A program made the position numbers and the translations under genes. This document shows positions 1 through 13,710 of a DNA stretch of 64,000 nt, one piece after another (position 1 is the stretch's first letter; each line of letters starts with the position of its first letter). Origin of the DNA: Entoloma clypeatum (lineage: Eukaryota; Basidiomycota; Agaricomycetes; Agaricales; Entolomataceae); assembly GCA_963565915.1 (NCBI GenBank), contig OY751486.1, positions 1,426,001-1,490,000 of the forward strand, read 5' to 3'. The notes under the pieces are model-generated. The model was not told the origin of the DNA. It saw only the letters and a list, made by a program, of their open reading frames with translations, and ran no database searches.

Positions 1-656
1 TGATATTGAAGTTGATAACATGGGGAAGCTGGTGAGAGCAGCAGAAAACCAGTACCAGCTGCTGCATTCTGGATATGACGAGTCCCTTGCCGACGGGGGT
101 TTTGCCGGTAACGACTCTGATGGCCCAGGAGATGCCCCCTTCTCAGACATGATTGGTTGCCATTCTGCTGCCTCGCCATCTATATTGATAGAGGTACACA
201 TCGCGAGACTTGTTCTGCTGGGTGTTGTATTTGGTGTCATTGTCCCTCTATCTTGTCATCAGTCAACTACTTCAAGTTGACCTCGTTCCATCAGGGTCAA
301 TGAGGAAGAGCTCGGACCAGAGTAGTATTTCAAAGTCCGGTCTGGTTTCATTTTTTAACCCTCAAAAATTCAGACACTGGGAAAAATGAGACCAAGACCA
401 AAACTGGTTGGGACCAGTTCCAATATGACCAGTCCCCAACTTCTTCAACTGGTGGAGAATGATTGCAGTGGTCAGTTTCCCGTTCGAACTAGAAAGCAGC
501 AGTCAACAGCAGATACAGAAATAAGACTTGGCTGCGGATGGTCTTTATGAGTGGGTGGAGTAACCAAATGGGTTATAAGTGATGATATGATTAAAGAGAG
601 GCCCAAACAATTTTCTTCAGATTTTTGGGAATTTCTTTGGAATTTATTATGGGTGT
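1..656. other. Unassigned left flank
   Basis: No recognisable gene. A small open frame on the plus strand (20-280, 86 codons) has no motif I can name and ends before any domain is evident, so I do not call it a gene. Bases 320-430 resemble the ACCGG-rich MITE seen twice elsewhere in the window and are listed separately. Bases 430-656 hold nothing I recognise. Confidence 0.4.
325..432. repeat. Degenerate copy A of ACCGG-rich MITE family
   Basis: Contains the family signature of a GTCCGGT-type stretch, then ACCCTCAAAA with a nearby GAGACCAAGACC block. The same order of motifs occurs at 35087-35262. This copy is diverged and its ends are unclear; the assignment rests on motif order rather than on clear termini. 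Confidence 0.45.
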
Positions 657-658
657 AG

Positions 659-1699
659 TTGACTCGCCTGAGGTCGCGTGGCCTGTACGGCTGGTATTTT
701 GAGAAACACTGTGGAATCATGGAGGATCCGTCCGTAGCCTTCTACGGACGGTACATCGATGATGTACTGGCTTTAGTATATGCCAATTCAGAAGCTGAAG
801 CGCTTCGTATTGTGCAAAAAGTCGCCATCGAAGATTGTGTTATTGAGTGGAATGTGTCTGGGTCTCATCAACCCTTCTTGGACATGATGTTGTATCGCGA
901 CGAAAGAGGCGCCTTGCAACACATGCCTTATCGCAAAGCACGTTCACACTTGGAACGAATTCCATACATTTCCCACCACCCGCTCGATGTAAAGAGAGGG
1001 ACTTTTATCGGTGAAATGTCGAGGCTCGCCACGCTGAGTAGTCTACAATCGACTTACCTCAGGGCACTGCAACAGTTGGTATTGTTGTATGTGAAGCGTG
1101 GGTACCCCGAAGAACTTGTTAAAGCATGGCTTAAGAAGTACAGTACTGACAGTTGGGCTAAACGTCTCAACGAAGTGAGAAAGGCACCTGCAGAGGTGTT
1201 GGTACTTAAGTCACATTTTAACGAGGCATGGAATTACTTCTCCGCAAAAGAACTTGGTGACACCATCATCGGATTCTGGCGCGACTATCTTAGTAACGCC
1301 GAGCAAGGGAAATTCTCCCTCTCGCACCCACGATTTTCCGCTGACCCCGGGGACTTGGCGTCTGTTATGGACGACGAGGACCTGACGGTCATGGTTCACA
1401 CCGCAGGGGGGGTAACCCCCATGCCGGATATCCGGGTGTTAGGATTTGATAAACGAAAATTCTTGGTATCGCGAAAGCGTACTCTGAATTTATTTGACTT
1501 AACTACTCTTTGGAAAAAGGTGGTGATCACAGGAATGGACAAGGAAGCTTCGCGCCAGTCCCCGGTTGTTCGGCTGTCTGCAGACGACCTCGAGGACTCC
1601 TCAGATTCAGAACTATCTGAAACCGAAGGAACCGCACTGGCGCACCTTGTAAATACTCGTCAGAGTCTCGGAGACGCTTGGTTGTCTCGTCACGACTGA
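659..1699 (+). pseudogene. Penelope-like retroelement reverse transcriptase, C-terminal part (Coprina-like)
   Basis: Encodes the last 346 residues of a reverse transcriptase. The catalytic block YGRYIDDVLALV is at about residues 28-39. It is followed by the arrangement typical of Penelope-like enzymes: a YRK block, then ISHHPLDVKRG, and a long helical thumb. No GIY-YIG endonuclease is seen after it; the protein ends with an acidic tail and a stop at 1697-1699. The N-terminal fingers and the first catalytic Asp are missing, so the copy is 5'-truncated just before GWYFE. Family knowledge: basidiomycete Coprina elements are endonuclease-deficient Penelope-like elements that attach to telomere ends. 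C-rich telomeric repeats start 340 bp downstream, which fits that biology. The exact subfamily is inferred. Confidence 0.8.
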
Positions 1700-2040
1700 G
1701 TGTCTTGGCGCTTCGCAGCGTCGAGGGGGATATGGGAGAACAGTTGGATGTACCGGCTAGACCTACCTGCGTTATGGCGTGTGTATCCCTTTTGTAGTCA
1801 GTAGTTTAAGTACGAACGCTGCGGAAGGAGCATATGGGAGAACAACGCTAGAGTACCATAATAGTGAGAATAAACTCCTTGCTACCACAGACTTACCTAC
1901 GAAAGTGAGTCCCCCTTCATTCTCTGACCATTCCGGTTCTTTAACGGTGGTGGAAACCCACCCTGTCGGTGTAGCTGACCAACGACTTACGGTATAGCGC
2001 CTTCGTGCGCAATGGAAAACCATAGGAATTAGCCTTGGAG
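1700..2040 (+). other. 3' untranslated region of the Penelope-like copy
   Basis: Noncoding stretch between the reverse transcriptase stop and the first telomeric repeats. It contains a short internal duplication (ATATGGGAGAACA near 1730 and again near 1833, each followed by a similar stretch). No hammerhead core was found here, unlike the separate element at 2405-2890. Confidence 0.5.
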
Positions 2041-2196
2041 CCTAACCCTAACCGTAAGCTCAGCTTATATTGAAAAGATATATGCCTGCCTATTGACACA
2101 CAATAGCCAACAGCTTAACCTAACCTTACCCCCTAACAGTAACCCCTTACTCCTAACCCCTAACCCCTAACCTAACCCTAACCGGTTAACGTTAGG
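2041..2196. repeat. Interstitial telomeric repeats, C-rich strand
   Basis: CCTAACCCTAACC occurs at 2041-2053. A longer degenerate tract of CCTAA, CCCCTAA and CCCTAA units runs from about 2115 to 2184, and then flips to GTTAGGGG at 2191-2198. These are the complement of TTAGGG/TTAGGGG telomere repeats. The C-rich strand is downstream of the plus-strand retroelement, the orientation expected if the RNA 3' end was copied onto a G-rich chromosome-end overhang. Confidence 0.8.
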
Positions 2197-2714
2197 GGCT
2201 GGGGGTGAGTCCGGCCCTTGCTAGACTCAACGACGGACGTGCGCCCAACCCTAGGGTTGGGTTGGGAATGTGGGTCATCTCGCTCAGCTGGTGTCGGTTC
2301 GAACAATCGACATGTCTAGCGATGAGATTGCCTGCTTGTTCGCCCTTGCTTACTCCAGCTCTGATGTCGACCATTGTGTCTGGCGTTTTTACGTACATTT
2401 CGTAAATAATGTACTTAGGTGGTTTCCCGTAACTGTTCTTACAGGTTACTGGGTATTGGTTAGTTTTCTTGTTGTGTGTCCTTCGGGATAACGGTCTTCG
2501 CCTTCAAAGATCTTCGGACTTTGATGTGGGAGCGATCCGTTATCTCGGTTCACTCGGATCTCACCCGGACCGCTGGTCCGTGATGGGGATTCCCCATAGC
2601 CTTACCTTTGCAGGGTCCTACTCGGGTCCTGTCTTGGCGAGCGCTATTGTGGCGTTTTTCTCTCACGACCTGTCAGGCGTGTGACGAAGTGGACAATAGG
2701 CGGAGTCAGCTGCC

Positions 2715-2742
2715 CAGAGAACAATAGTTCTATTGTTCTCTG
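2715..2742. repeat. Perfect 13-bp palindrome upstream of the ribozyme
   Basis: CAGAGAACAATAG is followed after two bases by its exact reverse complement. The second element copy keeps a 13-bp stem at 12742-12771 with a 4-base loop of different sequence. Conservation of the arms with a changed loop suggests that the RNA hairpin (or a DNA cruciform) matters. Confidence 0.75.
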
Positions 2743-2758
2743 AATGACTCAACCGATT

Positions 2759-2838
2759 GCCGTTTTCGGACCTGATGAGGCCTATAAAGGCCGAAATAGG
2801 ATCCCGGACTTATCCCAAGTCCTATTGTCCACATCGGC
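2759..2838 (+). ncRNA. Hammerhead ribozyme, copy 1
   Basis: All hammerhead elements can be placed. Inner stem I is GGAC (2768-2771) with GTCC (2827-2830), and an outer stem I pairs GCCG (2759-2762) with CGGC (2835-2838) across an internal loop. The core CTGATGA is at 2772-2778. Stem II is GGCC (2779-2782) with GGCC (2789-2792) around TATAAA. GAA is at 2793-2795. Stem III pairs ATAGGA (2796-2801) with TCCTAT (2820-2825). The cleavage triplet ATT predicts cutting after 2826. The topology is type I. Hammerheads are established in Penelope-like retroelements; activity of this one is inferred from intact core residues. Confidence 0.88.
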
Positions 2839-2890
2839 ACACAGGCCCCTCAGTCGCACTCCTCCTCGCTGCGCTCGTCGTAGTGCTCCT

Positions 2891-2920
2891 CCCCTAACCC
2901 CTAACCCCTAACCCCTCAAC
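2891..2920. repeat. CCCCTAA telomere-like tract, left boundary of cassette
   Basis: Three to four units of the 7-mer CCCCTAA directly follow the hammerhead element. The reverse complement is TTAGGGG, a variant of the TTAGGG fungal telomere unit. The tract at 12575-12592 is its mirror image. Confidence 0.85.
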
Positions 2921-2925
2921 CTGTA

Positions 2926-4946
2926 CCTTACGCAACGTACTCGACATCCTCTCGCGTCGAACAACTTGCCATTTTTGGTGTCTCAAACCTTTCTCTCCCA
3001 CCCGCGCAAGCTAACGATGCTTCTCTTTTTAACACCTCCGTCCTGAGTCTCTCCGCTGACAGCCCTTTCATAGGGTGGGATTTCCTCATCCGGAATATTC
3101 CTGTTTACAAGACTCATCAATGCTTGCTCGGCGAAGACATCGTCACGCTCGAGTTCACCACTTACAATCCTGCTTTCGCGCTCTCAACTTTCACAAAAAC
3201 CGACACTGGCGTCGATTGCAACATGCTAATTAAAGACTTCAACGTTGGTCACATCCGGTCGATGCATTTGACGTACTGCGCACTGCCAACGCATCGTTTC
3301 GGCGTCCTAGCGGACAATGGCCCTGCCTACTGGGCTGAACTCCATGACTATCTCGACAACCATCCATAGAGCCCACCCGACTAGTCACATCTGATGAACG
3401 CAAGAAGTTTATCAATCGATCAAAACAGTTTTTCCTAGAGAATGACCGAATTTGGAGAATCGACTCTCGTAAGTCACCTCGTCTAGTCATCACTGATTCT
3501 TCGCGTCGTCAGGAAATTATTTCTGAAGCACACATCGCCACTGGTCATCGAGGCCATGACGCCACATTCAAAGTGATCGCCGATCGTTATTATTGGCCAA
3601 ACCTCTACGACGATGTCAAGTGGTTTGTCCGTTCCTGCAACGCATGTCAGATTCACTCCAAAACGAAACCGATTGTCCCATATGTGTCAACGTGGACGTC
3701 CTCCGTCCTCCGCCGTTTTGACCTCGATACTGTCCACATGGAAAAAGGCGCCGGCAGCATGCGTTACCTTCTTCAAGCCACCGAACCGTTCATCGAGTGG
3801 GTAGAAGCTCGCGCCGTTCACAAGACGACTTCCGCGGCTTGGGCAAAATTTTTGTACGAAGACATATTCTGCCGCTTCGGAGTCATACCCGTTTTCAAGG
3901 TAGATGGCGGCTCAGAGTTCAAAGGTGTCGTAGATCTCTTATTCTGTCAATATGGGGTCGTCGCATTCCTTTCTACTCCTTATCATCCACAGGGAAACGG
4001 TATTTCAGAACACTCGCATCGAACACTCGTGAATTCAATCATCAAGGCTTGTGGGACACGTCCTCAAGACTGGCCTCACTACGTTCACCCGGGATTATCC
4101 GCATTTTGTGTCACGACTACCCGTTCAACTGGCTACAGCCCACACCATCTCCTTTACGGACAACGCCCGTTCTTTGCGTTCGAATATGCAGATCACACAT
4201 GGGATACATTGGATTGGCACACGGTCAAGACTTGTGTCGACCTTCTTGCCTTACGAATCAAACAACTTGCTCGTCGTGAGCACGACCTTTCCAATGCCCT
4301 CGAGACTCAGCGCGCCGTCGATGATTTCAACAAGAAATACGCTCACCTTTTGAACTTCAAGCCTCTCGATCCTGGGACGTGGATATTGAAGAGGGAGGCG
4401 TGGTTGGACGAACAAAAAGGACACAAGGGAGCCCCTCGTTGGACAGGGCCCTTCATCATTGCATCGGTAGTGGGTAATGCGGGTATGTCGTACAATTTGC
4501 TCAAGCTCGATGGAACTCCCTTGCCCGGCGTCATTGCCGCTGATCAGGTCAAGGTCTTCTTCTATCGCAAAGGCCATCAAACCCTCAAGTCCGTCTCAAA
4601 GAAAACTCACGCCATCTTCGCGGCTGCCCACTCGACCCTTGGCATCCCCAACGCGTCCACCATTCTCTCCTGCATCAACAATCACCCCGACCTGTCCATC
4701 CCCACCTATCCATTCACCGTCATCCCATGTGTCCGGACTGTATCGATTTTTAATTCCGAGCCTTGCATGCGGCCTTCCATCTATCCAGCTGCTTCTCTTC
4801 GAACGGCCGACGCTGACCTCCCGCTTCATAGGTACAATGGTTTAGTTTGGATGTTATGCCAGCGCCCCGATGGCTCCGCTTGCTGCTTGCAACACCGCCT
4901 CACAGGCCCTCATGGTGAATCACTCGTTCGTTCTACTCCTAAATGA
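2926..4946 (+). pseudogene. Ty3-type retroelement integrase, frameshifted fragment
   Basis: From 3366 the frame encodes a complete integrase-like protein. An HHCC zinc-binding region (HIATGHRGH then CNACQ) is followed by a DDE catalytic domain with Asp in DLDTVHM, Asp in FKVDGGSEF and Glu in GNGISEH, and a GPF-type C-terminal module (WTGPFIIA). The spacing between the second Asp and the Glu is 34 residues by my count. Upstream residues (about 2926-3369) are in another frame ending at TAG 3367-3369, so a one-base shift breaks the polyprotein there; the second frame continues openly to 4944. No reverse transcriptase or LTR accompanies it. After the GPF module come about 120 residues I do not recognise, and no chromodomain. 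It may be a captured piece of a Gypsy polyprotein inside the telomere-bounded cassette. Confidence 0.75.
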
Positions 4947-7900
4947 TCCGCTGAGTGCCCTTGTCCAATCTTTTCATTATTATTCTTTCTGTTTCTTTTC
5001 TTTTCTGTTGTTCCTTCTTGGTCGCAAATGACAGGGACGTCATTTTAAGTCCCGGGATTTGTAGGAGTGCTATGCACCCTACGGACGCTCACTCACTCTT
5101 TCCCTCTATTCACATCAGGTGATTGTCGTCGCGCGCGCGCATCCACTTCAACTCTCGTCAACATCGTCATTGCAGTCCCCGCGGACTCCCTTACTTACAA
5201 CGAAGCTTCTTTTTTTTTAACAGCTCCAAACTGCTTCCTTTTTTAATCTATCCTTACAGAAAACCTCTTATCTCATCTTTGGACGATCATCGACATCCCG
5301 TCACGCCGATAAAAGCAATTCACGCTACGTCGCTATGGGGACACATGCGTTTACGGACGATGAGGCTCGAGAATACTAGACGGTAGGGTTAGTGTCATGC
5401 GCCTCGAGGATAGACGTCAAACGAGCACCGTCTGGGGGAGCGGTATAGCTCTCCTCGAGTTGAAAGCCCCGCACCCGAGTCATACCTAGTAATTCAACGG
5501 TCGACAAGTTCCGCGGCGCCTGGTGATCTCAACACAACCGGACCGAAAAGCTGAAGGCAAAAATCCTTTTAATTCATCGCTTCCGTTACGAACAACTTGC
5601 ATTCCTTACAACCCTGCCTGTCATCTATATACAGACACTTCGTTACCAATTATCTCGACCCTTGAAACTTGATAGCAAATTCTCTTTGTACATGTTAGTA
5701 GGTACAAATCGTTTGTACTCGCATCGCGAAAATGTATCTTGGCCTTTCTGACTCCCACTTTTCGACTTCGTTTCTGAAAACTTTGCTTCACTAACGCTTC
5801 CTCTCTCACTCACTTGGGCGGACCCCACTTGAGTCTACCAAATCGACCATATATCTTTGTGTTTCATGTCCCTCGCAGTTTACGACTCGCCTCGCTGCTC
5901 TCCGGAGTGTTTAAGCTTACCATCCCTGCACCGTCCGTAGCCGGTTTGCGCCTCCACATCAACAACTGGACACCCCAGCACGTGATTTTTCCTATATTAT
6001 TTGTTCCAAAACTTGCGTTACCGTTAGGATTTGGCTGGCAAGGCCTGTAACCTGCTCAGAAACGGGAATTTCCTTGATCTGACATTTTTACCATGAAGGT
6101 GCACCTCCTGGGAGGAGACTCTCTCACCATCATTAGTCAGCCAGCCTCATATTCCCAGAGCAGGCAAATAAACAAGCCGGGGGTCATTTTGGGCTGGTTG
6201 GCGTCGGCTGGCTTCTTTATAACAAAGCAGGCTGTTATCGCCTGTGCTCAGTCCCACTGGTTCCTATAGCTTCTTGACACCCCCTCCACACTTCACATCA
6301 ACAGTCACACTGTCACTCCTATTCCTGGAAGGGGTTTTGTACTTTTAAACTACTTTGCAACAAATATGGTCCCACCAACTTCCACGCTGATTTGTCATCA
6401 ATCGAGTCATATGCCAGTCGAAAGAGAATAAAATTCTGGTCAGAACGCACCCTGAGTCATAATTTTCCGTCGAGAATTGACTCCACGCGAGGGGAAACGA
6501 CTTATATTGATTGTGAGCATGTCAGCCGGCGAATTGTCGGTATCTCGGTATATCCCGATTTTGATCAATCAATCAGCCATGTCAGCGCCAGACACAGCCT
6601 CCGATCTCTCGCTACAGCAACTGCCCAGCCACTCACGTTGGATTTGTCAGCAAGTCAGCAGGCTGATCGGGGCCCAGGCTGGTTCCGTCTGACGTGTCAG
6701 TCCGCCACAGCCACAGCCAAGACTGTCAGTGCCCAGCGCAGTCCGCTGATGTCAGCATGTCAGCCATCAGTGGAATAGCCAATTGGAATGTGTTCCACTG
6801 CACTGGCTGACATGTCAGGCCGCACATGGCTGTGTCTGGACAGCCGATTGTATCCGGTCCGGCTGCACAGCCTGGCTTGCCAGGCGAGGACTGTGGGAGT
6901 TTTCGCACAGTCCTTGATCAACAACGCTGCTCGTCGTCTACTCTCTGTCCTCCTCGCGGGTGAGGGACGTTCTGCCGAGGAGTAGTCCCTGGCATCCCGT
7001 CTCTCGTCCTTTGTCCTTTGTCGGTTGCCTCGAGTCCTCGGCACTTTGTCAACGACGACGCCTGAACGGGAACCGTCACGCTCTATCCGTTCGAACAGCG
7101 GCCTCCGATGGCTCTGAGCTCAAGACCTCGGTTCTTGAACGCACGGGATGTCTGCATGCAAGATTCTCGAGATTAAAAGCTCAGGGCGAAGGTATGTCAT
7201 TCACCAAAACATTAACGACAATGAAGGCGATCGATTCGTCGTCGTCTGTGCTGATAACATCATTATCTTCTGCCATAGGTCCACCATCTATATGACAACT
7301 TGGCACGCTCTTATCGCACCTGCTTCGATTCCGGAAAGACGTTTCCTCACTCATCAACAATTTCGTCAACAACAAAATGGCCGCGTTCGAGCGCTTCGCA
7401 CATAGAGACACGGGCGCATCAGGACAAGGTATGCACGCCCTTGCCTCCCAACATCGGCCACTGCTAAAGAAACACCACAGCCGACACACACTCCCTTCGC
7501 ACCTCCACTTCTACCATGAAATGAGCGTAGCAGGACGAGGTACGCACGCTGCACGTCCCACCATCGATGGCTGCTAACAAGTAGGCACCACAGCGGCAAT
7601 GCCGCGAACAACCGCGTCCCGATCTTAGAGCGATGCACGCAGTCACCTCCCTCACGCCGTCGACGGCAGCCCCTATCACTTCAGCCCACGCGAGAGTGTA
7701 CTCTCGCGTCGGACCTGGAGGTTGCAACGCGGGGGTTTACCCCCACGTCTGTATCAGATACCTTAAACCAGATGCCTCGCACGGCATCTAGGAAAAACGT
7801 CCAAAATCGCATGCTCCCGCTCCCGCTACTGCCCACTTCCTCTCAAGCAGATGCCAGGCCTGTAACCAGCGCACCACCGTCTCACTCCGCCAACGAAGGC

Positions 7901-9605
7901 CCGAGACGAACGTGTGAGGACGTTCAAGACAACCACGTTCGACAAAGAGATGAGACGCCCCTGCCACGCGACCCAGGTGCACTCTATCGACGAATTCGCG
8001 ATCAGACGGCTGGCCTAGGGCATTTCAGACCTCACACCAGCCAAGACGAGGCGAGGCGGCTAAACCACGCTTCGAAAGACGTGTGACGCACTCTATAGCC
8101 AAGTGGACGACTGGGCCGCAAGAGTACACCCACCTGTCCGATCTGTCGGTCAAAAATACAGCGCATCGACGCAGCAAGGATGCAGGACGCCCACCGCGTG
8201 GTAAGGACCTCGCGTCCCTCAGCTTTGATGCCCATTGACGGGCACACTACCACGTAGCAACGTCCCACATCCCTGTCACGGCCATCAGCACGTACCATGC
8301 CTCGTTTGACGGATCTTAACCCTGTTATACAACGGCTCACGACCTTCACTCCCACCTCACTGTCCCGCTGATGGGGTTCCATCAGTCGAGACAACTCCAT
8401 CCAGCACCACACCAGCTCGTCAGCGAAGGAGATGGCTTTACCGACCACCATCATCGACGACCCACCGCCGGGACGAGACATCCACACGACAAGACTTCGG
8501 AAGACGTAGGTGTGAGAGGGAATCACCAACAAAACGACGATGAAGAGGCGATCACGGCTGCATTGCGCTCTCACCCAATCTAGAATACAACACCGTCTAC
8601 GAGAACGCAGGGGTACACGCGTGTGCAGTAACCCCTGCACTACTACATTCCTCAATCAGTCAGGTCGACGACCAGGATGCACGGCTGACCCGACATGTCA
8701 GTCTGCCATTTGCTGATGTCAGTGTGTCAGCGGACAGCCACCGTCTGGACAGCCGCTCGTGGGCTGACGCCTGACGCGTAACCAATCAATAGAACAGTCA
8801 TGGACAGCCACAGGAGCTCGGTCCAGCTGCACAGATCGATCAGCCATTCGTGTCAGTCCGCCATTCTCGGTAAGTCAACACATGTATCACATGATTGGGA
8901 CTCACGAAAGGACCCCTTGCGAACCCAGCTGCGCGCCCTATTGTCAGCATGCGCAGCCTTAGGTTTGTCAAACGGCTGCGCCATCGCCAGCTCTCCTCAG
9001 CAGCGATTCCGACCCGTACAACTTTGAGTGAGTTCGACTTTTTTTTCTCGTACCAACTTAACTCAAATCTGTCGTAGCTTTTGTTTCAGCGTACAACCAG
9101 GTTCGCTTCTTCGATATCTCGCTGCTGTCTACGACGATGTCAGTTTCAATGGAATTTATGGATCATGCACGAGGTCTGGTGGCCGATGAATGCACTCACC
9201 CGAGGTCTGGTGGCCGATGAAGGGGTTTCAGATTCACGTTTCTTGTTACTTTTTCGTCTACGTTTTTGCTCTTAGCAGCGGATAAAAAGGATTTCCTTTT
9301 TCGGATGATCATATAAACTCATTTCGTGCCCACAATACTGGCGTCAAAATCATCACTACATAACCTCGTCATCACCAGTATCTCATACACGACTGGTACG
9401 AGTCCCGTTCGCAGTCCACGGTCTGTCCCATCCACGTCATCAAGCAAGATCTGTGATTTGATGGACTTCACTACCTGTCATCGCTGGGAAGATCGTCCCC
9501 CCAGTGGTTCGAATCTTGCCCTCTATGGAAGGAGGCTTCCTTTATCAGCATATGAGGCGGTTCTCGTGACACGACACTTTTTTTCATACTCACTTTCACC
9601 CACCC
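4947..9605. other. Long stretch without a supported gene
   Basis: Only short open frames are present, without recognisable motifs. Bases 6500-6900 and 8690-8880 are rich in scattered GTCAG, TGACATGTCAG and TGGACAGCC motifs, suggesting two related degenerate noncoding repeats. A 21-bp phrase around GGTCTGGTGGCCGATGAA is duplicated 34 bp apart near 9168-9222. An open frame at 8032-8655 on the minus strand (207 codons) lacks any domain signature and I treat it as chance. Confidence 0.5.
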
Positions 9606-12589
9606 ATGTCGTACCAGCCGCCGGCGGAGCGCCAAAGCTCGTGAGTTGTCCCATCGATAATTCGGCTGTCTTTTAATTATATCCTTAGTACCGACGACGA
9701 GCAAGACAATCCCGGTCAACAGACTGATCACCCATGTGGGAAATGCAGACAGAGATTCTTGTCGGCCAAGGACTTGCGCTTCCATACGCGGAAGATTCAC
9801 CAACTCACGACAAAGGTCAAATATTCGGATTGCGAAATTGAGGTATCGAGGAACCCGAGCACTCTCTGTTTCCATTGCGGGCGGTGCGCGGGACATTACA
9901 AGGACCCCACATCTCTGCAGGTGCGAATCTGCGCGGGTCTGATTGAACGATCAAACTCAGTTTGATGACTAGAAACACGCGAAAACATGCCATGCCATCG
10001 AAACTTTAGAATCGGGAGAGACTCCCGATGACCAAGACCTGCAACCGATCGGACCCTCCAACATAAACCGAATGCCACCTAGCAGTCCAAGTGCCCCACG
10101 TCGCTCCCCTTCTTTCATGCCATCTTCATCCCCGTCATCACCATGGCCCAGTATCAACTCTGACGCCACAACATACGACATGTTTGAAGAAGAAGAAAAC
10201 CCCATCCTTCCGGATGAAAGCACGGTCTTTCAGTGCAAAGAGATCAATCTCGCCGCTTACGGACTCATCATAAATACCAAATACCGACTTGTCATTTGCC
10301 TTGTATGCGCGACCGCTGTTTCCGTCTCTTCTCTTTATCGCCACGTCCACGCTCATTTTCCACGATGCAATTTTACGGGCGAGTATCCAGCTGAGCTCCA
10401 AGACCAATTCAAACTCGTCGATCTCTCTAGTATCCAATACTCAAAAGGCCTGACCAGACCCGTATTTGGACTCAAGGTTCAACCACTCCCTTACCACATA
10501 TGCAGGCGATGTTTGCGCGGTTACGAGAGCCCTGAAAGCCTGCTCGCCCACCAGGCCAACTTGCAAAGATGCCCCCTACGTACCGACGGCGTCGGAGGTC
10601 AACTAATTGCCTATGTTCAGATTTTCACGACAGGAAAGCACCGAAGAAATTTTCCTATTGACCACACAGTCTTGTCCAAATCCAGACGAATCGGTCCAAA
10701 CCCGCTCGACATTTACAAAACAAACCCGCCACCGAGGCGCGATTATGCTACGATGGCCATCCAGAACCCAGTCAACAACCTGGATCTAGATGTATTCCAA
10801 CACCGCGAGCACTGGATCGACCACCTAGTTGGTTATACACCCGAAGCCATCCAAGACGCGACACGCGTCCCCATACCAGATGATGGAGTGACTTACCAGA
10901 TTGTTGCATACTCGAAGCACTATCTTTTGACTGCTGAGGCGGCGATCGACGGCCATGCCTCGTTCGGGATCCCGAAGAAGATTGCTCAAATTCAACCAGA
11001 GTGCGTGTCACGAATTTTTTCAACGGCTACGATGTCTGACTTGTCGACCCTTTTAGGCAGCCCTCTCTCCATTCATTCAAACGGCTCCAGCCCAACAGTC
11101 TGGTTGAATATGCACGACTCTTATCGCGCCTCCTCTTCAATGTGATTCGATCAATGTCTACGTCTGAACCGATGGAGTACAGGTACTGTATCCCACGACT
11201 CCAAGCCAAACTGCAGCCCTACTCGCTCTCAAACAAGCCGCAGAAAGGAGTGAAACAGATGTCGATTCGTTTTCGTTTATGCAAAACGCGGTCCTTTCCC
11301 TATTCTCACATATCAAAAAGGATGCCAGTCAAGACAAGTACTTCTCATGTATCAATTGTTTCCTCGTTCTTGCCAGCATGCGTCCAGATGGGAGTATGAA
11401 AAAGGCCGGCGAAGTCACACAGATTATTGCCAAACTAGTTTTCGCAAACAGGTGCACCCAACTGCAAGAGATTCACACCGTCATGGCACGGGAGAATGTA
11501 TCAGTCGACGAGTAAGACTCCATATTCCTTTACAGCCTCTCGATTTTCTGACATTTGCAATCTCCTTTTATCAGAGCATATGAACGCAGGCGCATATATT
11601 TACAGGACATGCAAGAAACGCCGATGGCATATTTGTACAACATCCATTGTCTTCTCACCGTCCTTCGAGCAAACGAATACAACCTTGGAGACATCCAATT
11701 TAACGACCAACGGGGGCGGGAGCTCTCCTTTCACGGGAACATCATTTGTCTCAGCGCGTTCACAAAAATGTGGCAAGGACTACGTCTCTCATACTCGGAG
11801 ATCATCAAAGAAGAGATCTTTTTTGGTGAAAACCCCCTTCCGCTAGCGTACGATCTCCGAGAGCTCGTGGACAACCCCAATAACACGTCCAACGGCTACT
11901 CCTTCATTGACGATCCTCGAAACCCTTTTACAGATGCTCACCACCTTTACGTCGAGTGGCTCCTGTCAGACGATGCCCGAGCCTCCCGTTTTACCTATGT
12001 ACACAAAGGAGCGCTCATTTGGAAGGCCCAACCTTGTCGAAAGCTGATGCGGTCTTTTCAACGGGCGCGCAAAATTCTGTTGACTCTCACCATTGTAGAT
12101 GCAGGGCCTTCCAACCGCGCAACAGAAATTGCTCGTGAGACCTTTCGCAACATTCCCGCCGTTGCCGTTCGCAACCTTCTTATTCAATATCACTGTCTCA
12201 CCATTGTCGGAATACAAGATAAATCATCCCATCATCGAATGCAGGCTCGTTTCACGCCTCACGCTCTAACGACCGACACCAGCGAAGATTTAATATACAA
12301 CCTGGTTATCTTGCGCCCGTTTGAGGAAACTCTTGCGCAATTCTTTCATGGACAACAAGACGCCGATCGATTCCACCTCTATCTCTGGCCCGACTACCCC
12401 AAGAACATCAGCAGCGAAACCCTAACGAATAACCTAGGAGACGCAACATTGAAGTATCTCGGATCCACTGTCAAGATTCGGGATTATCGAGCCATTCATG
12501 CAGTTATTGGGCGGCGTCACGGTGACCCAAAGCTGTTTGAAATCTCCAAAGAGTTCTTCTACGATCAGCTCGAAGGGGTTAGGGGTTAG
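9606..12589 (+). CDS. C2H2/OrsD-like protein of the telomere-linked RecQ type, truncated at its 3' end
   Basis: I read a spliced gene: exons 9606-9640, 9689-9920, 9973-11000, 11057-about 11182, about 11217-11511 and 11575-12589, with introns of 48, 52, 56 and 63 nt and typical GT/AG ends. The 34-bp jump at 11183-11216 is too short for a safe intron and may be an indel. The first exons encode a classical zinc finger (CGKC, 12 residues, HTRKIH); the 52-nt intron, when removed, creates a second one (CFHC to KHAKTC). Exon 3 has two further C-x2-C and H motifs (CLVC with HVHAH; CRRC with LLAH), as in OrsD/DUF3505 domains. The last exon has the RATEIA, RNIP and RPFEETLA pattern that I recall from fungal subtelomeric helicase-linked proteins. 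The helicase core itself is absent: the frame runs into GGGGTTAGGGG, which supplies the last codons and the stop. Family placement is by recall of motif layout. Confidence 0.65.
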
Positions 12590-12592
12590 GGG
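12575..12592. repeat. TTAGGGG telomere-like tract, right boundary of cassette
   Basis: GGGGTTAGGGGTTAGGGG on the plus strand, the mirror image of the left tract at 2891-2920. It interrupts the preceding open frame and is followed at once by the inverted hammerhead element. Confidence 0.85.
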
Positions 12593-12647
12593 AGATAGTA
12601 GTTCCTTCACTAAGAAGGACTAAGGAAGGGGCGACTGTGGGGCCTGT

Positions 12648-12726
12648 GCCGAGTGGACAATAGGACTTGGGATAAGTCCGGGATCCTATTTCGGCCTTTA
12701 TAGGCCTCATCAGGTCCGAATACGGC
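12648..12726 (-). ncRNA. Hammerhead ribozyme, copy 2
   Basis: On the minus strand all elements of copy 1 recur: stem I GGAC (12717-12714) with GTCC (12658-12655), outer GCCG/CGGC pairing (12726-12723 with 12651-12648), core CTGATGA, stem II GGCC-TATAAA-GGCC, GAA and the same stem III. Sequence changes relative to copy 1 fall in the stem I internal loop and flanks, not in the catalytic core. Confidence 0.88.
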
Positions 12727-12741
12727 AATCGTTGAGTCATT

Positions 12742-12771
12742 CCAGAGAACAATAAGACTATTGTTCTCTGG
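12742..12771. repeat. Palindrome of copy 2
   Basis: CCAGAGAACAATA, loop AGAC, then TATTGTTCTCTGG. It is the counterpart of 2715-2742. Confidence 0.75.
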
Positions 12772-13142
12772 GTCAACTGACTCTGCCTATTGTTCACTTT
12801 GACAGCAGTCCGACAGCATCGCGACAGGGAAGACGCCACACAGCGCTCGCCAAGACAGGGTCCGACAGGACCCTGCCAGGGTAAGGCTATGGGGTTTCCC
12901 CATCACGTCACCTGGATGCAGAAGCATCCAAGTCACATGACTTCGCAGAAACTGACAGGACGGCGCACCACAGTGAACCGATATAGCGTATCGTTCCCAA
13001 ATCAGAGTCTGAAGAACTCTGAAGACGAAAAACACTATACCAAAGGATATACAACAAAAAACCAGACCGATACCGAAAACATGTACGAACAAGTACGGTA
13101 AACCACCTATACTTATTGCTGGTCGGAATGCTTGTATGATTC

Positions 13143-13240
13143 CAGGTGTCGACACCCAGGTGTTCCAGGTGTTGGCCCAGGTGTCTCAGGTGTTGGCTCA
13201 GGTGTCTCAGGTGTTGGCTCAGGTGTCACTTGTTTCACTC
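13143..13240 (+). repeat. CAGGTGT minisatellite
   Basis: Tandem variants of a roughly 20-bp phrase built from CAGGTGTT-GGCTCAGGTGTCT. Related words occur in both orientations near 13786-13890, so a larger diverged repeat may span 13143-13890. Confidence 0.65.
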
Positions 13241-13244
13241 AAGT

Positions 13245-13710
13245 CTAGTACTGTTCTGCTTGGAATTATACTGCGAATCCAATGCCCCTGGAATTTATAA
13301 ACAAAAACAAATATTCCGAGGTTAGTGTTTGGTGTTAGTGTTTGGTGTTGACTGGTTAGGCTGGGATCATTATTGCCTCGTATAGTATCATTCTGCTTGC
13401 AATTTTAGTGCTGTTTTGATGGCCCTGGAATTTGTAAACAAATCCAAACATTCTGCTGTTGTCACACGTATATAGTATCATTGTGCTCGCAATTGTAACA
13501 CGAGTTTGATGGCCCTGGAATTTGTAAACAAATCCAAACATTCTGCTGGTGTCACATGAGTTTGATGGAGCTTGAATTTGTCAACAATACCAAACAATCT
13601 GGTGTGTATTATATTATTCTTCTCGCAATTTTTGTGGGATAATAGTAACAAACAAACTCGAATTTATAAATCAATCCAAACATTCTGGTGTGTATTAAAT
13701 TGATTTGTGT
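13245..13710 (+). repeat. Degenerate tandem repeat with 90-bp period
   Basis: The phrase GATGGCCCTGGAATTTGTAA starts at 13418 and again at 13508, exactly 90 bp apart, with TATAGTATCATT at 13381 and 13471. Weaker units lie at about 13245 and 13605. No coding potential. Confidence 0.7.

What the first reader, a model, noticed from the sequence alone, without database searches (positions are those of the whole stretch)
2405..13115. A 9.7-kb cassette bounded by inward-facing telomeric tracts and mirrored hammerhead retroelements
On the left, a plus-strand hammerhead element ends exactly at CCCCTAA repeats; on the right, TTAGGGG repeats are followed exactly by the same element inverted. Each junction has the polarity expected when an RNA's 3' end is reverse transcribed onto a G-rich chromosome end. 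The interior therefore looks like DNA that once had a capped end on both sides, such as a small linear chromosome fragment, or two subtelomere pieces joined, now flanked by more sequence. It could also be a compound terminal element that mobilises with captured integrase and helicase-linked genes, like the rotifer terminons.
Basis: partly seen in the sequence, partly recalled or inferred. Interest (0 to 1): 0.88.

Follow-up and report, generated by a model that had tools for sequence, protein, structure and literature searches.

The report
Broken DNA capped by telomeric retroelements
A 9.7-kb piece of fungal DNA is broken at both ends, and on each broken end sits a short telomere tract followed by a chromosome-end retroelement; it looks like two separate scars of breaks that the retroelement capped, rather than one moving cassette.

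Summary
Window 684-2915 is the 3' part of an endonuclease-lacking Penelope-like element (PLE) ending in a hammerhead block and CCCCTAA repeats; 12575-13110 is TTAGGGG repeats plus an inverted ~520-bp hammerhead unit. The interior (about 2916-12574) is two truncated pieces: a Ty3/gypsy element missing its 5' part, and a gene with weak C2H2/OrsD matches cut off before the helicase domain its C14 relative has. Homologous copies elsewhere run through both breakpoints. Five further junctions with a comparable native copy look the same: non-telomeric DNA broken, GGGGTTAGGGG-type repeats plus PLE glued on, native continuation not found beyond. Breakpoints overlap the telomere register more than random joins (21 junctions, P 1.5e-4 or 1e-5 by background). 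So the PLE attaches to broken ends with 0-5 nt of microhomology. The two caps differ: over full length the left is 99.6% identical to its best relative, the right 84% (its 3' half up to 92%). The whole unit was found once. I read it as two independent capping events later internalised, not a compound mobile element; a single linear mini-fragment is possible but unneeded. The element is of a known kind; the sequence-resolved internal scars are the interesting part.

The parts
1..647 (.). left outer flank; 1-181 is a dispersed repeat, 182-647 almost without matches elsewhere; no continuation of the interior's gypsy element found
648..683 (+). short divergent stretch resembling the PLE RT motif (MGVVDSPEVA vs MGVADSPDLA; tblastn E 4.2 on its own) at the 5' junction of the left PLE
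684..2890 (+). 5'-truncated PLE: C-terminal part of the RT ORF (open frame 659-1699), 3' UTR with degenerate CCCCTAA tract 2119-2183, hammerhead block about 2405-2890 (ribozyme match 2755-2848)
   Evidence: collinear with copies at contig ends: C8, C10, C17 95-98%, C12 85%; hammerhead
2891..2915 (+). CCCCTAA tract; junction to the broken gypsy is ambiguous over 2912-2916 (AGGGG on the G strand is shared by native DNA and repeat)
2916..5958 (+). 3' part of a Ty3/gypsy element (integrase ORF 3348-4946, 3' LTR 5060-5958), 5' part missing
   Evidence: 94% to C11:3261685 and C11:3269619, which continue upstream; PF17921 E 6.5e-18; LTR pairs
5991..12574 (+). element or gene E: starts TATATTATTTGT; coding 9645-12574 with weak C2H2 and OrsD matches (below Pfam cut-offs); truncated before the helicase domain
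   Evidence: homologues C14:405-427k, C10:236-242k, C8:5151.2k; weak domains; C14 copy has Helicase_C PF00271 E 2.5e-13 beyond the breakpoint
12575..12592 (+). GGGGTTAGGGGTTAGGGG tract on the broken E gene
12593..13110 (-). solo hammerhead unit (ribozyme match 12638-12730); best full-length relatives 84% at C2:399803 and C2:907121
13122..13658 (+). right outer flank: dispersed repeat; 13321-13564 is 93-96% identical to a repeat near the ends of C2, C5, C6, C10, C14; longest matches are internal (C9, C14)

Best explanation
The structure is two independent scars of broken DNA ends capped by an endonuclease-lacking, hammerhead-bearing, telomere-attached PLE, now buried inside a chromosome. Steps: (1) a break in non-telomeric DNA exposes a 3' end that shares 0-5 nt with the TTAGGGG register (shown by sequence); (2) the PLE RNA, whose 3' end carries CCCCUAA repeats next to the hammerhead, is reverse transcribed onto that end, directly or after telomerase has added a repeat or two (inferred; the choice is open); (3) the capped end serves for some time as a chromosome end, or at least as a protected end (inferred); (4) the distal, 5' side of the PLE is later joined to unrelated DNA, leaving the scar inside a chromosome (unrelated distal sides shown within the stretches searched; route inferred). 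By sequence divergence this happened earlier at the right side of E and recently at the gypsy element on the left.
For: Of 74 hammerhead rows, 60 lie within 100 kb of a contig end (6 of them on the 55-kb contig C17); the 54 near ends of chromosome-sized contigs all point their 3' end inward (recount; rows are pieces, about 25 places on 13 contig ends). RT ORF of 1158 aa at the C8 end; homologues 47-61% identical in the 120 of 326 listed; 6 of 9 homologues scanned match RVT_1, 1 above the curated cut-off; no GIY-YIG match. Both interior ends are truncated where homologues continue. Same anatomy at C2:184k, 400k, 767k, 907k and C8:5151k. The immediate native continuation was not found on the distal side in 7 of 7 junctions with a native copy (distal stretches 250 nt to 81 kb). 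Overlap with the repeat register exceeds random: 21 junctions P 1.5e-4, 1e-5 with another background; 7 internal ones P 0.002. Caps differ: 99.6% versus 84% best full-length identity. The right outer flank carries a repeat common near contig ends, in the order seen at the C10 end.
Against: No sister genome was available to show an unbroken ancestral locus. Four of seven distal stretches were short (250-1165 nt), and for C2:184k only 79 nt of native continuation was in hand. The C2:400k native copy is only 82% identical. The flank repeat also has internal copies, its longest matches are internal (C9, C14:411k), and at the C5 end it lies on the other side of the hammerhead unit. The left flank to 30 kb was not shown to be subtelomeric. 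The right unit's 3' half reaches 87-92% to terminal copies, so its age gap is smaller than 84% suggests, and a lost sub-lineage would look alike. Several of the 21 junctions are PLE-on-PLE joins and may share history.
Confidence: 0.6

Rival explanations
1. One linear 9.7-kb fragment (or a product of chromosome shattering) was capped at both ends and then ligated into the chromosome.
For: Both ends are truncations with outward caps; by orientation alone, C2:468.5-766.7k is also bounded by outward-facing copies.
Against: The caps differ in sequence age or lineage; inward pairs at this spacing are expected in 10-12% of random layouts. Centromere or origin were not looked for.
Confidence: 0.13
2. 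The PLE patched internal double-strand breaks directly, without any stage as a chromosome end; the partner end was a different broken DNA, giving a translocation.
For: Very short repeat tracts (several only GGGGTTAGGGG) look RNA-templated rather than telomerase-extended; junctions occur deep inside C2; telomere repeats inserted at mammalian breaks are a precedent (PMC2246262, passages).
Against: The original partner end was not found beyond the patch in 7 of 7 cases, and a repeat common near contig ends adjoins the right cap, which favours a stage as an end but weakly.
Confidence: 0.18
3. Assembly chimera of two contig ends.
For: C2 has 200-N joins next to telomere arrays at 1994617 and 5578140, one near a hammerhead copy at 183301, and one 14 kb left of the window.
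Against: No N in the window; similar junctions with diverged PLE copies occur at several other places. Reads were not available.
Confidence: 0.06
4. Compound terminal element (terminon-like) that mobilises the interior.
For: Hammerhead plus telomeric 3' end is the terminon layout (PMC6431247, passages).
Against: No second copy of the unit seen; interior parts are broken pieces of other elements; mirrored caps cannot be one transcript.
Confidence: 0.02

Closest known systems
Telomere-attached endonuclease-deficient PLEs of rotifers, fungi, protists and plants (Athena; the fungal name Coprina is recalled) and terminons
   Same: RT without GIY-YIG, hammerhead immediately upstream of reverse-complement telomere repeats, 5'-truncated head-to-tail arrays at chromosome ends, short telomere stretches between copies (PMC6431247 and PMC3846280, passages)
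   Different: here copies are also joined to broken LTR elements and coding sequence deep inside a contig; no giant multi-gene unit seen
MoTeR telomeric retrotransposons of the blast fungus
   Same: internalised telomere tracts, breakage, healing and rearrangement at chromosome ends (PMC7367193, passages)
   Different: MoTeRs insert in telomere repeats; that they are not PLEs is recalled
TERC-ITS and interstitial telomeres inserted at mammalian double-strand breaks
   Same: telomere repeats added at breaks with a few matching nucleotides (PMC2246262, passages, some from the abstract)
   Different: there the break is rejoined around the insert; here the original partner end was not found, and a retroelement rather than telomerase RNA is attached
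Subtelomeric RecQ-type helicase genes of basidiomycetes
   Same: E's C14 copy has a Helicase_C domain; RecQ-type genes are subtelomeric in Agaricus (PMC7473861, passages)
   Different: the window copy lacks the helicase part; that E is RecQ-type was not tested

Membership tests
Telomere-attached endonuclease-deficient PLE | PLE-type reverse transcriptase | tested here: inconclusive
   own ORF has no Pfam hit but a YIDD motif; 6 of 9 homologues scanned match RVT_1, best E 6e-7, one above the cut-off; no tree against PLE and telomerase RTs was built
Telomere-attached endonuclease-deficient PLE | no GIY-YIG endonuclease | tested here: met
   no Pfam family at E<=1 in the 1158-aa ORF, no GIY or YIG letters
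Telomere-attached endonuclease-deficient PLE | hammerhead next to reverse-complement telomere repeats at the 3' end | tested here: met
   hammerhead match below Rfam gathering score
Telomere-attached endonuclease-deficient PLE | location at chromosome ends, 3' end inward | tested here: met
   60 of 74 rows within 100 kb of a contig end; 54 of 54 near chromosome-sized ends point inward
Hammerhead ribozyme | conserved core and three stems above Rfam gathering score | tested here: inconclusive
   core intact, E 2.7e-4 and 3e-3, but 25.2 and 22.0 bits against 52
Hammerhead ribozyme | self-cleavage | not testable with these tools
   needs bench assay
Terminon (giant telomeric PLE with captured genes) | RT and accessory genes co-mobilised as one unit in several copies | tested here: not met
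   whole unit found once (40 of 90 candidates scored)
Interstitial telomere inserted at a repaired break | native sequence resumes on the other side | tested here: not met
   not found in 7 of 7 junctions tested, four with short distal stretches

The most novel reading that the evidence does not exclude
The PLE reverse transcriptase primes directly on broken, non-telomeric DNA ends with 0-5 nt of match to its CCCCUAA 3' end, so that a retroelement, not telomerase, caps broken chromosomes; the scars, datable by sequence identity, record a history of breakage and fusion that built the first 2 Mb of this contig, and the 9.7-kb piece is its smallest doubly capped fragment.
Probability: 0.3. Interest if true: 0.75.

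Novelty: new variant of a known kind. Interest (0 to 1): 0.47.

Why it matters
If a telomerase-related retroelement routinely caps broken chromosome ends, retroelement capping and telomerase healing can be compared in one living fungus, and the scars give a record of chromosome breaks and fusions. It bears on how telomerase may have arisen from, or been backed up by, retroelements.

Tried and rejected
Rejected: compound mobile cassette (no second copy seen); simple insertion of a PLE into an intact site (native continuation not found); meaning in the mirror symmetry itself (10-12% by chance). Rfam at gathering scores listed nothing. Pfam did not recognise the RT ORF; the PDB search gave one weak hit, a Drt3a reverse transcriptase (E 0.082). 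Pfam found no family in the broken ORFs at C8:5151k and C2:184k. Empty-site search with the left flank led nowhere because 182-647 has almost no matches elsewhere; the right-flank search was swamped by a dispersed repeat and repeated on a shorter piece. Junctions L030 and L052 had no native copy among held loci, and L054 was not tested for one. In one search, 29 of 30 junctions got an automatic native match; I dropped 9 of the 29 because the 'native' was telomere-like, the element's own internal repeat tract, the locus itself or a pattern artefact, kept 20 and added one, giving 21. The window-right junction was scored as no overlap because its native copy is only 88-89% identical; its printed values (-2, and -1 for L008) enter the mean of 1.71, while both P values use 0 for negatives. 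Own-genome DNA searches score at most 40 candidates, so copy counts are lower bounds. The primary papers on fungal telomeric PLEs (Gladyshev and Arkhipova 2007; Arkhipova et al. 2017) were seen only as citations and not read. Six literature searches showed capped lists (12-20 titles each) with no title on PLE-capped internal breaks in mushrooms; that is a statement about those lists only.

Full report
Setting. The window is C2:1426001-1490000 of a 60.1-Mb genome in 20 contigs, 12 of them 3.7-5.9 Mb long. Where homologues of its RT carry a name in the listed 120 they are from Armillaria and Lentinula, so I take it as a mushroom-forming basidiomycete (inference). Several, not all, of the large contigs begin or end in CCCCTAA/TTAGGGG arrays. 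Of 10 ORFs scanned among 34 listed in the rest of the window, 6 are retroelement proteins.

Observation. The left unit is the 3' end of a longer element: 684-2916 aligns collinearly at about 95.8% with copies at the ends of C10 and C17, parts of it at about 99% with C5, C8 and C15 copies, and at 85% with a C12 copy. The intact relative at the C8 end has one 1158-aa ORF with a YIDD motif and no GIY-YIG. In one search, 74 rows match the left unit; 60 lie within 100 kb of a contig end (6 on the 55-kb contig C17), and the 54 near ends of chromosome-sized contigs all have the 3' end facing inward (recounted; rows are pieces, about 25 places on 13 ends).

Interior. 2916-5958 is the 3' part of a Ty3/gypsy element ending in its LTR. 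C11 and C9 copies run on through the breakpoint (GCCCCCCTCAACC), the window does not. 5991-12574 is E, with homologues on C14 and C10; its own domain matches are weak (OrsD E 0.012, C2H2 E 3e-5, below cut-offs), but the C14 copy continues past 12574 into a helicase domain (PF00271, E 2.5e-13). Searching 30 kb to the left and 51 kb to the right for the lost continuations, the C11 gypsy native gave no hit; the C9 native gave hits 5-6 kb past its break to stretches of the right flank, of which the main one is a dispersed repeat; the C14 native of E gave two hits, 4.4 and 7.8 kb past its break, to places 28-30 kb to the left, in reversed order and of untested nature. None is the sequence next to the break.

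Generality. At C2:767k an integrase-like frame (rve E 4e-6, below cut-off), at C2:184k and C8:5151k open frames without a known family (the C8 stretch is 98% identical to C11 pieces), and at C2:400k and C2:907k other DNA are each cut and followed by GGGGTTAGGGG-type repeats and a PLE 3' end. In 7 of 7 junctions with a native copy, window included, the native continuation was not found beyond the PLE, with the limits given under evidence against. In 21 junctions the native end overlaps the repeat register by 1.7-1.9 nt on average against 0.68-0.76 for random joins (P 1.5e-4; 1e-5); the 7 internal ones alone give 2.0 (P 0.002).

Age. Among full-length matches the left unit's best relative is 99.6% identical, the right unit's 84.0% (held loci; genome search best 84%). 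Partial matches to the right unit's 3' half reach 87-92% over 162-309 nt, some of them in terminal copies. So the caps are unlikely to have been made together from one RNA; I read the right one as older, though a lost lineage would look alike.

Mechanism and alternatives. The common feature is attachment of the PLE 3' end to a broken 3' DNA end with a few matching bases. Tracts of only 11 nt at several junctions suggest the repeats are copied from the PLE RNA; telomerase-first healing is not excluded. Whether the ends were ever chromosome ends is inferred from the usual location of the element and the repeat next to the right cap, which is common near contig ends but also has internal copies, its longest ones included.

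Known context. Passages seen: PLE 3' ends with a hammerhead exposing telomere-complementary repeats, and arrays cut by short telomere stretches (PMC6431247); EN-deficient telomere-associated PLEs in fungi (PMC3846280); Penelope elements at Agaricus chromosome ends and subtelomeric RecQ genes (PMC7473861); MoTeR-driven breakage and healing (PMC7367193); telomere repeats at mammalian breaks (PMC2246262); rotifer telomeres with Athena chains and microhomology joining (PMC2861651). The element is thus a known kind; the broken-DNA junctions with native comparisons are what this adds.

Counts were recounted; claims about ORFs at other junctions were tested.

Noticed in passing
C2:36-151, C2:1994441-1994616 (L014:8441-8616), C2:5578340 on (L016): C2 holds telomere arrays beside 200-N joins; its first 1.99 Mb has telomere arrays at both ends and may be a separate chromosome. 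Ten of the hammerhead copies listed far from ends lie there; other far ones are on C11 and at C2:5577-5581k (listings are lower bounds).
   Followed up: partly
L046 (C16:1-300): A 13-kb contig starts with 6-base CCCTAA repeats, unlike the 7-base CCCCTAA seen at other ends; possibly a contaminant.
   Followed up: no
window:648-683: Stretch at the 5' junction of the left PLE resembles the same RT motif but is diverged; may mark a homology-guided join to another RT gene, or chance.
   Followed up: partly
L055:1490-1600 (C8 right end): Cut open frame, 11-nt telomere tract, 5'-truncated hammerhead, then the start of element E (TATATTATTTGTCC), the same start as window 5991.
   Followed up: partly
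L051:758-858: Hammerhead stem II carries a paired change (GGCC/GGCC to AGCC/GGCT) in one copy, hinting at selection on the fold.
   Followed up: no
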